Origin: Halalkalirubrum salinum
GTDB taxonomy: Archaea > Halobacteriota > Halobacteria > Halobacteriales > Haloferacaceae
Length of the DNA stretch: 64,000 nucleotides
Direction: 5' to 3'
NCBI RefSeq assembly: GCF_005543295.1
Contig: NZ_SRSG01000003.1
Span: 1-64,000 of the forward strand
Position numbers and translations under genes: made by a program. The notes under the pieces are model-generated. The model made no database searches, had not been told where the DNA came from, and was given only the letters and a program-made list of their open reading frames with translations. Below, one piece after another: positions 9,872 through 13,238 of the stretch. How positions within the stretch are numbered: the first letter of the stretch is position 1; every line of letters starts with the position of its first letter.

Positions 9872-9961
9872 TTATGCGATCTGTTGACTATACGTATCGT
9901 ACACAGAGAGGCCTGTTTGAAGGATTTCATACACCTCTTCATTATTTATGGAAGTTTCAAG
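9872..9961 (-). pseudogene. 3' fragment of hepT, cut off by the TnpB element
   Basis: On the minus strand, the 90 bases ending in TAA at 9872-9874 encode LETSINNEEVYEILQTGLS and then VYDTYSQQIA. This is the C-terminal helix expected of HepT proteins after the R-X4-H-X-Y motif. Joining base 9961 to base 11419 restores one frame: HEYGH followed by LETSINNEEVY. The rebuilt HepT has about 145 residues, normal for the family. The fragment has no start codon and is now separated from the rest by about 1.46 kb. Confidence 0.8.
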
Positions 9962-9968
9962 GCTAAAA

Positions 9969-9988
9969 CCCCGCCCTTCAGGGCGGGG
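9969..9988 (+). repeat. left-end hairpin of the TnpB element
   Basis: Arms CCCCGCCC (9969-9976) and GGGCGGGG (9981-9988) enclose the loop TTCA. Subterminal hairpins of this kind are what IS200/IS605 Y1 transposases bind. The loop and flanking bases recur in the right-end hairpin. Confidence 0.85.
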
Positions 9989-10100
9989 ATACAACCGACA
10001 ACCCATACACTAACCCTGTTCAATGGCACTGCCGGATATTCCACGCCCAGTCGTTACTTTTAATATACAATTTCTCATAACTGGTTATGGACACAGTCTG

Positions 10101-11369
10101 ATGCTGGAGATAACCCGCACCTATCGAGCGAAAATCGTCAACCACCAACAAGTGAGAGACGACCTCGACCAGTGTGGGTTCTCCGCGTCGAAACTGTGGA
10201 ACGTCGCCCGATACTACACGCAAGGCCGATGGGGTGAAGACGGGGAAATCCCCGACGACGGCGAACTCAAATCCGAACTCAAGAAACACGAACGATACAG
10301 TGACCTACATTCTCAGTCAAGTCAGCGAGTTCTCGAAGAGCTTGCTGAGTCGTTCACTAGTTGGTACAAAGCACGCCAACGCGGAGACGAGAATGCCAAC
10401 CCACCCGGCTACCGCAAACACGGCGACGAACACCCACGCTCCACCGTGACGTGGAAGCAGAAAGGAATCAAGCACGACGCCAACCACAACAAGCTCCGCC
10501 TGAGTAAAGGTTTCAACCTGAAGAACCACCGCTCGGACTTCATCCTCTGCGAGTACGAGACGCGACCAGACGTGACCGTGGAGAACATCCAGCAAGTTCG
10601 AGCCGTCTGGAACGGCGACCGCTGGGAACTCCACCTCGTCTGCAAGGTTGAGATACCCACAGAGGACGCTCCCGGCGACAACACGGCGGGTATTGACCTC
10701 GGTATCAAGAACTACCTCGCCATCGCCTACGACGACGGTGACGCTGAGTTGTATCCGGGGAACGTGCTGAAACAAGACAAGCACTACTTCACCCGTGACG
10801 AGTACGATACAGAAGGCGAAAACGGCCCGTCACGTCGTGCGCTTCGTGCCCGTCAGAAACTCTCGCGTCGGAAAGACCACTTCCTTCACGCACTCGCCAA
10901 GCACGTCGTTGAGCAGTGCATCGACCACGAGGTCGGTCGTATTGTCATCGGAGACCTGAGCGAGATTCGTAAGGACGAGAACGGTGACTCACGGAATTGG
11001 GGTCGAAGTGGGAACAAGAAACTCCACGGACGGGAGTTCGATCGGTTCACCACGTTGCTCGAATACAAGGCGGAGGAACACGGTATTCTCGTTGACCGAA
11101 CGAGCGAGCGCGACACGAGTAAGACGTGTTCGTGCTGTGGACGGAAGCGTGATGCGAATCGCGTGGAGCGTGGCCTGTACGTCTGTGAGTCGTGCGGAGC
11201 GACGATGAACGCGGACGTGAATGGTGCAGTGAACATTCGGAGAAAGATAACTCAGAATCCTCCAACAGAGGATATGAGTAACGGTCGTTTGGCACGGCCA
11301 GTAGCCTACCTGTTCAACCAAACCTCCGGGTCGTTCCACCCGAGGGAACAGGTGGGTTGCGAACCTTAA
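10101..11369 (+). CDS. tnpB: TnpB RNA-guided nuclease
   Basis: 422 residues from the ATG at 10101; an earlier in-frame ATG at 10023 lies in the element's left end and reads poorly. The N-terminal half is the basic recognition part. RuvC-I is AGIDLGIKN with Asp199. The RuvC-II strand reads IVIGDL with Gly284 where classic TnpB has Glu; a Glu follows later in FTTLLEYKAEEHGI (Glu321). RuvC-III is NADVNGAVNI with Asp372. A zinc finger (CSCCG and YVCESCG) sits between RuvC-II and III. TnpB uses an RNA from the element's right end to cleave empty donor sites next to a short TAM. The Gly-for-Glu change with a shifted Glu matches described TnpB variants with a rearranged catalytic site, so loss of activity should not be assumed. 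Confidence 0.9.
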   Translation: MLEITRTYRAKIVNHQQVRDDLDQCGFSASKLWNVARYYTQGRWGEDGEIPDDGELKSELKKHERYSDLHSQSSQRVLEELAESFTSWYKARQRGDENANPPGYRKHGDEHPRSTVTWKQKGIKHDANHNKLRLSKGFNLKNHRSDFILCEYETRPDVTVENIQQVRAVWNGDRWELHLVCKVEIPTEDAPGDNTAGIDLGIKNYLAIAYDDGDAELYPGNVLKQDKHYFTRDEYDTEGENGPSRRALRARQKLSRRKDHFLHALAKHVVEQCIDHEVGRIVIGDLSEIRKDENGDSRNWGRSGNKKLHGREFDRFTTLLEYKAEEHGILVDRTSERDTSKTCSCCGRKRDANRVERGLYVCESCGATMNADVNGAVNIRRKITQNPPTEDMSNGRLARPVAYLFNQTSGSFHPREQVGCEP

Positions 11370-11434
11370 TATCCCAACGCTCGGGAATCCTCGCCCTTCA
11401 GAGCGGGGAGGATGTCAAATGGCCGTACTCGTGA
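11290..11434 (+). ncRNA. probable TnpB guide RNA (omega/reRNA) with guide in hepT
   Basis: By analogy with characterised TnpB systems, the guide RNA overlaps the tnpB 3' end and runs through the right-end hairpin (about 11387-11413) to the element end at 11418. The guide is then the next ~16 bases of flank (ATGGCCGTACTCGTGA, 11419-11434). That guide lies in hepT and would match an intact, element-free hepT allele. The 5' border is a guess; the 3' border follows from the element end. Confidence 0.45.
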
Positions 11435-11766
11435 GCGAGCACGTTCCGAAAGCCGATTGCAGCGACAAGCGTATTGGCCGTTTCTTCATCGATAACACCC
11501 TCACGGCTGAGCACGCGAATGGCGCCTTTGGATGTTGTGCCGTTGAATCCAAATTCGCGTGTGGCGATGTGTTGCGCAAGGTCGCCAGAGGCCTGAATTA
11601 CGTTTTCGAACATCCGTTCGACGGCACGCTGCTCGGTCGTACTTGAAAGAAATTCGCGGTTGGAGAGTGTTTCTTGTTTTCTTTTGAGCTCGCCGTGGTA
11701 CTGCTCAATCTGTTTGAGTTTAACCGAGATGACCCGTTCGTCAACCACGTAATCCGCCCTCCGCAA
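11419..11766 (-). pseudogene. HepT (HEPN, DUF86) toxin, 3' end replaced by the TnpB element
   Basis: The intact part encodes 116 residues of a HEPN ribonuclease with the signature RNVLAHEY (R-X4-H-X-Y). The current reading frame runs six codons into the element and stops at 11398 (HEYGH then LTSSPL). About 29 native C-terminal residues are lost and found again at 9872-9961. In MNT/HEPN modules the antitoxin MntA adds AMP to the Tyr of this motif, which is still present. The truncated protein may be unstable or inactive, since HEPN dimers use the C-terminal helix; that is inference. The start at 11766 overlaps mntA by 26 bases; a later GTG (YVVDERV region) is another candidate. Confidence 0.85.
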
Positions 11767-12163
11767 TCCGATCGATTACCGCGCGCTGTTCACGACGAAG
11801 CGCCTCACGTTGCGCATCAAATTCTGTCTCTATTGTCGCCTTGAATTTCTCAAATAGTTGTTTGTCGCCACAGAGAAGTTCGCCGTTCACGGCATCGTGT
11901 GCAACATCCACTGGGAGTGATTCGATATCAGAGACATCAACAAAGGGGAGATCTTCGTGTTGGATCTCACCAGACAGGAAACAGCGCTTGTCGAATCGAT
12001 CGCGCTTAGAAAGCTCATCAGCGAACTTGACGGCAAGATCAAAATCAGATGAGGACGTCGATTCACCCGAGAGCTGTGATCCAAAGACGACAGCAAACAC
12101 AATATCTGGATCAGCGCAGACCGTCTCCGCTAGGGTAGAACGCGTCGCTGCACTCAGATCCAT
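11741..12163 (-). CDS. MntA nucleotidyltransferase antitoxin
   Basis: A 140-residue minimal nucleotidyltransferase with VVFGSQLSGESTSSSDFDLAV, the GS-X-G-E...S-D-F-D-L metal site, and a third acidic strand (DLPFVDVSDI). MntA proteins neutralise HepT by transferring AMP to the HEPN Tyr. I take the ATG at 12163 (MDLSAATRS) because the upstream ATG at 12175 adds only four poor residues. The gene overlaps hepT, as usual for this operon. It is intact although its toxin is broken by the TnpB element, so it may be a free antitoxin now. Confidence 0.85.
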   Translation of the reverse strand: MDLSAATRSTLAETVCADPDIVFAVVFGSQLSGESTSSSDFDLAVKFADELSKRDRFDKRCFLSGEIQHEDLPFVDVSDIESLPVDVAHDAVNGELLCGDKQLFEKFKATIETEFDAQREALRREQRAVIDRIAEGGLRG

Positions 12164-12232: not shown

Positions 12233-12496
12233 TTACTCAGCATCAGTGTCGGACTTCTTGTTCGCCTCACGGATCTCGATCGCCACATCTGTGACGTGTT
12301 GCTGATGCGCTGCTGAGAGTTGTGCGCTCTGGGCCGCATCGAGCTGTCCGTCGACGACCGCGTTCTGTTGTGGCCCCCATCTTTCGGGCGGCTCGGACTT
12401 GATGTATTCGACCCAGCGTTTGATACCCTTGATGCGCTGCTCGCGGTTGCGTTCGTGCTTCGCCGCAAGCTGCTCACGCTTGTTTGAGTCGCTCAT
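12233..12496 (-). CDS. small charged protein overlapping the nucleotidyltransferase-like gene
   Basis: An 87-residue (from ATG 12496; 92 from 12511) strongly hydrophilic, Gln/Ala/Glu/Arg-rich, helical protein (KREQLAAKHERNREQRIKG, AQSAQLSAAHQQHVTDVAIE). I do not recognise a family. The start lies 23 bases inside the 3' end of the upstream gene (stop at 12474), so the two are translationally coupled. The arrangement of a large nucleotidyltransferase-like protein followed by a small overlapping partner resembles a toxin-antitoxin module, and it lies next to the MntA-HepT pair. Function is not known. Confidence 0.65.
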   Translation of the reverse strand: MSDSNKREQLAAKHERNREQRIKGIKRWVEYIKSEPPERWGPQQNAVVDGQLDAAQSAQLSAAHQQHVTDVAIEIREANKKSDTDAE

Positions 12497-13076
12497 ATTC
12501 GTCCTCGACATCGAGTCGTGTTACCCACTGTTCGAGGCGGGGGACACTAAGACTTTCTTCGAACAGCGTGAAGAGGTGAACGGCGTCTTCGAGATCCTTC
12601 TGCGCAGCGAGGTACAACTTGTACGCGATCTGTAGTTCGAGCGGGCCGATCGGGACTGCGCGATCGCCGATCTGCGCTGTGATCGCGTTGGTGAGCGATG
12701 AACGATCGAACTCATCCCGCACAAATTTGACTTCGAGATGCGGCGTGATCTGGTCTTCCGGCGCGACCCAGAGGTTTTCACCGTTGTTGAGCATCTCGTA
12801 TATTGAAACGAGCGGCATTGCTGGGCCCCAAAATCCTTCTTTGGCAAGCATCTCCGCAAGTTCCTCTGCAGTCTCTTCGTCGATCCGTTCAATAAGAACG
12901 TCGACATCTTCGGTCGAACGTGCTCGGCCGGCGAGAATCGAGACGTATCCGGCGATGTAGACATGTCGGATCCCGAATCGATTGAGAATATCGGAGAACG
13001 TGATCGCTAACTCGTCGAGTTGGTTCGGCTCACGCTCGATAATGAGCGTATCGTTTCGAAGCTCAATACCGCCCAT
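12474..13076 (-). CDS. nucleotidyltransferase-fold protein (DUF6036/AbiEii-like)
   Basis: 200 residues. The motif IAGYVSILAGRARSTEDVDVLIE matches the glycine-rich G-X-X-X..(T)-X-D-X-D-(V/L) pattern of nucleotidyltransferases grouped as DUF6036/AbiEii-like. A later acidic strand (TPHLEVKFVRDEF) fits the third metal ligand. A helical C-terminus (LELQIAYKLYLAAQKDLEDAV) also matches that group, in which ELQ..YKL...KDxxDA is recurrent. Members are toxin or antitoxin halves of defence modules. It is the first gene of a two-gene unit with the small protein at 12233-12496 and lies about 160 bases downstream of pgk, on the same strand. Confidence 0.65.
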   Translation of the reverse strand: MGGIELRNDTLIIEREPNQLDELAITFSDILNRFGIRHVYIAGYVSILAGRARSTEDVDVLIERIDEETAEELAEMLAKEGFWGPAMPLVSIYEMLNNGENLWVAPEDQITPHLEVKFVRDEFDRSSLTNAITAQIGDRAVPIGPLELQIAYKLYLAAQKDLEDAVHLFTLFEESLSVPRLEQWVTRLDVEDEYERLKQA

Positions 13077-13238
13077 AGCGATTCATTAGGTGGCCGGCGC
13101 ATAAATCCCGCGAGTAGCCGTACTGACTCATTATGTCTATTGTAGTCGTCTCCCGGATCGATCGTCAGCAGGGCCTCCAGCCCCTGCTCGATCGAGAGGT
13201 CATTCGCTACAATAAACAGTATCGCCGTACCTGTACTG

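What the first reader, a model, noticed from the sequence alone, without database searches (positions are those of the whole stretch)
9872..11766. TnpB element splits hepT, and the old gene can be rebuilt
The 116 N-terminal residues of HepT lie right of the element and the last 29 left of it. Joining 9961 to 11419 gives one frame (HEYGH then LETSINNEEVY). This gives near-exact element borders and shows the event is recent. The antitoxin gene mntA is still intact, so the module now has antitoxin without a complete toxin. Loss by a selfish element is a way to keep the antitoxin while disarming the toxin.
Basis: seen in the sequence. Interest (0 to 1): 0.65.

Follow-up and report, generated by a model that had tools for sequence, protein, structure and literature searches.

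The report
TnpB element inserted in hepT toxin
In this salt-loving archaeon a small RNA-guided mobile element (TnpB) has cut the toxin gene of a toxin-antitoxin pair in two and left the antitoxin whole; it is a real but ordinary insertion, and related genomes show that this toxin is lost again and again, by many routes, and never seen lost after its antitoxin.

Summary
The split is real. A TnpB-only IS200/IS605 element interrupts hepT, the RNase toxin of a type VII MntA/HepT module; mntA is open, with its GSX10DXD motif. Borders, fixed independently by related element copies and by intact HepT homologues, are 9950-11418, next to a TTAT target. The 3' piece also ends early (TAA where homologues read CAA). 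Truncated HepT keeps the RX4HXY motif but loses the last two helices; AlphaFold confidence falls from 91.8 (intact homologue) to 71.3. 'Recent' is reasonable: hepT still shows dN/dS near 0.09. No exact empty site is held; the sister species lacks the whole module. In this HepT clade 19 loci have hepT broken or gone beside a full mntA, 21 have both intact, 11 have both damaged, none has intact hepT with broken mntA. TnpB elements or fragments sit in hepT in about four genomes; most other lesions are frameshifts and truncations. So the element is one of many ways to lose this toxin. Whether the antitoxin is kept by selection is unproven. Modest interest.

The parts
11741..12163 (-). mntA, antitoxin (MNT nucleotidyltransferase), open, GSX10DXD present (GSQLSGESTSSSDFD), overlaps the start of hepT
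   Evidence: NCBIfam MntA_antitoxin 60.4 bits at cut-off 60, Pfam Polbeta; 78% identical to MntA of L014
11419..11766 (-). hepT 5' piece, residues 1-116, with RX4HXY; its ORF runs on six codons (LTSSPL) into the element and stops at 11398
9875..9949 (-). hepT 3' piece, 25 residues (INNEEVY...QQIA), then TAA at 9872-9874 where homologues have CAA/CAG
9946..9949 (+). TTAT target / presumed TAM directly left of the element
   Evidence: directly before the element in 16 of 21 readable copies, shifted 1-2 bases in four, one rearranged
9950..11418 (+). tnpB-only IS200/IS605 element, left end to right end (..GGATGTCAA)
   Evidence: shared borders of close copies and HepT homologue alignment
10101..11369 (+). 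tnpB, 422 codons, RuvC D...Ealt...D and zinc finger intact
   Evidence: NCBIfam guided_TnpB 3e-57; catalytic positions
11245..11409 (+). omega RNA scaffold, Rfam RF02656 sot0042, full-length match
   Evidence: 94.9 bits; fold z-score -7.4
11419..11438 (+). inferred guide: first 20 bases of the right flank, antisense to the hepT catalytic motif
   Evidence: position only; inference from known TnpB systems (PMC8612924)
9831..12222 (.). segment (mntA, hepT pieces, element) absent from the sister species, where 53 unrelated bases stand

Best explanation
A haloarchaeon carries (and its sister species lacks) a type VII mntA-hepT toxin-antitoxin cassette next to its pgk-gap genes. A tnpB-only IS200/IS605 element, presumably mobilised in trans by a Y1 transposase, inserted without target duplication 3' of a TTAT within hepT, between codons 116 and 117. 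[Shown: borders, target, intact tnpB and omega RNA, split gene, open mntA. Inferred: trans mobilisation.] The remaining ORF encodes HepT up to its catalytic and AMP-acceptor loop plus six element-encoded residues and lacks the last two helices, so it is most likely an inactive, poorly folded toxin. [Inferred from homologue models.] The loss was tolerated because the antitoxin remained; toxin-first decay is the general fate of this HepT clade. [Shown by census.] The omega RNA would now carry an antisense hepT guide, so TnpB could cut uninterrupted copies of this same allele and help fix the disruption in a polyploid cell. [Inferred from ISDra2 and plasmid gene-drive work.]
For: Borders from element copies and from HepT homologues agree to the base. 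HepT/MntA family matches, HEPN-toxin fold of the intact homologue. Truncation lowers AlphaFold mean pLDDT from 91.8 to 71.3 and residues 111-121 to 48 and below. Omega RNA and tnpB intact. Four Y1 transposase matches in the genome. Census 21 both intact, 19 toxin lost first, 11 both damaged, 0 antitoxin lost first. dN/dS of hepT pieces unrelaxed.
Against: No empty-site allele was found. Ends of the resident tnpA loci do not resemble this element. The 3' piece has its own premature stop, so hepT may have been damaged before the insertion. No activity data for truncated HepT or TnpB.
Confidence: 0.85

Rival explanations
1. The truncated HepT (116 residues plus LTSSPL) is still made and still acts, as a weakened toxin or as a decoy substrate of MntA, so the module is altered and not dead.
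For: RX4HXY is intact in the remaining ORF, and the operon's 5' end with its mntA-hepT overlap is unchanged.
Against: The last two helices are missing and the break lies in the loop that carries the AMP-acceptor tyrosine; model confidence there collapses. In a related complex that loop forms part of the dimer interface, and helix 6 of HEPN helps dock MNT in others (PMC11586414).
Confidence: 0.08
2. hepT was already dead (for example by the CAA-to-TAA change) when the element arrived, so the element did not disarm the toxin.
For: Premature TAA in the 3' piece; point lesions are the commonest way hepT dies in relatives.
Against: The stop removes only about 7 residues of a variable tail, and both pieces show constraint like intact genes, so there was little time as a pseudogene.
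Confidence: 0.15
3. Orphan mntA is kept by selection, as an anti-addiction antitoxin or for another adenylylation target, and the insertion was favoured because it left mntA alone.
For: Full-length mntA next to dead hepT in 19 loci; mntA dN/dS in the window 0.14-0.17.
Against: The same pattern follows from purifying removal of antitoxin-first losses; mntA is also decayed in 11 loci; pairwise dN/dS mostly covers time before the insertion.
Confidence: 0.2

Closest known systems
IS200/IS605 TnpB elements (ISDra2; haloarchaeal sotRNA/omega RNA elements, Rfam RF02656)
   Same: tnpB, omega RNA at the 3' end of tnpB, subterminal palindromes, insertion 3' of a short target without duplication
   Different: no tnpA in the element; target TTAT (TTGAT in ISDra2, TTAC in IS608); RuvC-II glutamate in the alternative position
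Type VII MntA/HepT (HEPN/MNT) toxin-antitoxin modules
   Same: gene order, overlap, GSX10DXD in MntA, RX4HXY in HepT, HEPN fold of the intact homologue
   Different: toxin gene split and truncated here
TnpB gene drive of IS200/605 in multicopy plasmids (PMC11870625)
   Same: the guide is rewritten to the insertion site, so uninterrupted copies become targets
   Different: here the site is a chromosomal toxin gene; nothing was tested and no uninterrupted copy of the allele is known
Decayed toxin-antitoxin loci with orphan antitoxin
   Same: toxin lost, antitoxin left
   Different: here one clade shows many separate cases, a few of them involving TnpB elements

Membership tests
IS200/IS605 tnpB-only element | TnpB protein with RuvC and zinc-finger motifs | tested here: met
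   guided_TnpB 3e-57; D199, D372 and zinc finger, alternative RuvC-II glutamate seven residues before CxxC
IS200/IS605 tnpB-only element | Left and right ends with subterminal hairpins, fixed short target, no target duplication | tested here: met
   24-nt end repeat; common borders and TTAT; no duplication at the hepT site
IS200/IS605 tnpB-only element | omega RNA overlapping the tnpB 3' end | tested here: met
   RF02656 full-length match
IS200/IS605 tnpB-only element | RNA-guided cleavage at TAM plus guide | not testable with these tools
   needs biochemistry
Type VII MntA/HepT module | MntA with GSX10DXD | tested here: met
   sequence and NCBIfam match; motif as in PMC7641770
Type VII MntA/HepT module | HepT with RX4HXY and complete HEPN bundle | tested here: not met
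   motif present but the gene is split and the last two helices are lost; it is a disrupted member
Type VII MntA/HepT module | RNase activity neutralised by AMPylation | not testable with these tools
   needs expression and assay

The most novel reading that the evidence does not exclude
The element does more than break the toxin: its guide is now antisense to the HepT catalytic motif beside a TTAT, so TnpB cuts uninterrupted copies of this allele. Toxin loss would then be driven through the polyploid chromosome pool and locked against return by recombination, while MntA from the same locus protects the cell in the mixed state. TnpB insertions in hepT of other haloarchaea would be further cases of a drive that disarms toxin-antitoxin modules.
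Probability: 0.15. Interest if true: 0.65.

Novelty: new member of a known kind. Interest (0 to 1): 0.36.

Why it matters
An insertion sequence in a toxin gene is ordinary. The useful part is the comparison: one HepT clade in haloarchaea offers 19 loci where the toxin was lost before the antitoxin and none of the reverse, a natural test of toxin-first decay for a type VII system, and a set of orphan MntA proteins whose retention can be tested. The TnpB cases give insertions whose guide points at a toxin gene, usable for testing RNA-guided fixation in polyploid archaea.

Tried and rejected
Exact empty site: none in the two genomes of the genus, and the target occurs in the own genome only at the element junction. 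Viral contigs hold no close HepT relative; phage records hold no copy of the element. Source of the element inside the own genome: rejected, other copies are 64-68% identical. A MAFFT alignment of the left end with another copy was uninformative because of unequal lengths. An automatic intact/broken call misjudged the hepT of three loci (L017, L021, L059); corrected by reading frames. General targeting of hepT genes by this guide: rejected, none of 15 homologues has TTAT at the site and 1-8 of 20 guide bases differ. TnpB antisense to hepT with the right end facing mntA in three cases: noted, too few to matter.

Full report
WHAT IS THERE. The window lies in a haloarchaeal genome (G000, 3.4 Mb, contig C41). 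On the minus strand mntA (11741-12163) is followed, with overlap, by the 5' piece of hepT (11419-11766). Profile searches name them the MntA antitoxin and HepT toxin of type VII toxin-antitoxin systems. On the plus strand, between the hepT pieces, lies tnpB (10101-11369), with a full-length match to the haloarchaeal omega RNA family sot0042 at 11245-11409 and related hairpin-forming repeats at both ends.

BORDERS. Two independent lines fix them. First, element copies in other haloarchaea, most at 84-90% identity, begin at the target and end at window position 11418. Among 21 readable left flanks (the window included) 16 have TTAT directly before the first element base, four show it one or two bases further left, and one copy has a rearranged flank. 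Second, intact HepT homologues (88% identity and below) read HEYGH and then directly V or I, x, x, E, V, Y; the window's 3' piece begins with the matching I at 9949. Both lines give 9950-11418. The pieces were never joined; each was aligned on its own.

STATE OF THE TOXIN. The RX4HXY motif lies in the 5' piece (motif definition PMC7641770). The remaining ORF adds LTSSPL from the element and stops. AlphaFold gives mean pLDDT 91.8 and pTM 0.86 for an intact homologue, with helices at 118-127 and 130-146, and 71.3 and 0.60 for the truncated form, whose residues 111-121 fall to 48 and below against 82 in the intact one. The intact model matches crystal structures of HEPN toxins (7ae6, 7ae2, 5yep) with TM-scores of about 0.8-0.9. 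In known complexes the loop with the modified tyrosine helps form the dimer, and helix 6 of HEPN helps dock MNT (PMC11586414). I infer loss of function; it was not measured.

AGE AND ORIGIN. dN/dS of the 5' hepT piece against the three nearest relatives is 0.07-0.09, like that between intact relatives, so hepT was under constraint for most of its history. The own genome holds only a 34% HepT paralogue. The other element copies in this genome are 64-68% identical, so the element did not come from them; four Y1 transposase matches exist that might mobilise it, though no matching ends were found beside them. In the only other genome of the genus the segment 9831-12222 is missing and 53 unrelated bases stand there, between flanks of 87-91% identity. 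The module is a gain here or a loss there. No exact empty site is available.

CENSUS OF RELATIVES. HepT and MntA searches of 170 genomes of the family and 391 of the class (overlapping sets), named genome contigs and plasmids gave about 50 loci of this clade. By reading frames: both genes intact, 21; hepT broken, truncated or absent beside a full mntA, 19 (window, L021, L056, L058, L059, L027, L061, L057, L116, L117, L188, L189, L173, L178, L180, L182, L174, L197, L198), with two more uncertain (L046, L177); both damaged or missing, 11; hepT intact with mntA broken, none. If either gene were equally likely to go first and all events were independent, 19 of 19 has p of about 4e-6. Shared ancestry weakens this, but the frameshifts inspected sit at different places. 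Four loci with more distant mntA and no recognisable hepT (L179, L181, L184, L185) were not counted. Three Haloquadratum-type loci share one hepT lesion while mntA is intact in one (L178) and frameshifted in two (L187 and the second copy in L054), again placing the toxin first. A more distant HepT clade (37-46% identity) is mostly intact: by hand count, 35 of 38 against 18 of 34 in this clade (Fisher p 3e-4).

OTHER TnpB CASES. In Halorubrum cibi (L056) hepT stops at codon 77 against the right end of a different TnpB element and its 3' part is gone. In G370 (L182) a TnpB element stands between the end of mntA and a hepT remnant (residues 123-145). In G212 (L189) about 2 kb with TnpB fragments separates residues 1-73 from 129-150. 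TnpB elements thus hit this toxin repeatedly, at different sites, as one cause among several.

MECHANISM. TnpB of ISDra2 is guided by RNA from the right end and cuts next to its target motif, which is proposed to restore the element at empty sites (PMC8612924); in multicopy plasmids this acts as a gene drive (PMC11870625). Here the inferred guide is antisense to the HepT catalytic motif. It should reach only the parent allele: none of 15 homologues has TTAT at the site. The TnpB clade lacks the canonical RuvC-II glutamate but has the alternative one defined in PMC10711439, so activity is plausible, not shown.

VERDICT. A real, ordinary insertion, with corrected borders.

Noticed in passing
window 10101-11369; L074-L103: This TnpB clade has G or another residue at the canonical RuvC-II glutamate (IVIGDL) but keeps a glutamate seven residues before the zinc-finger CxxC, the alternative arrangement described for Fanzor-like proteins; the pattern holds in all 28 close copies checked.
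   Followed up: partly
L022/L190, L028/L191, L041: Three hepT genes of different genomes (one from the more distant clade) break off within two codons of each other, at G-F-R just before the catalytic motif; possibly chance.
   Followed up: no
G000 contig C5, 279095-280611 (L125): The only other HepT-like gene of this genome lies about 900 bases from a Y1 (TnpA) transposase gene.
   Followed up: no
window 12474-13076 and 12233-12511: A 200-residue ORF and a 92-residue ORF upstream of mntA have no Pfam or NCBIfam match; the sister genome lacks the 5' part of the first (about 12701-13202).
   Followed up: no
L189:2600-4800: The insert in hepT of G212 holds a 319-residue ORF, TnpB fragments and a palindromic repeat ending in CTATAG on both sides, a nest of mobile pieces.
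   Followed up: partly
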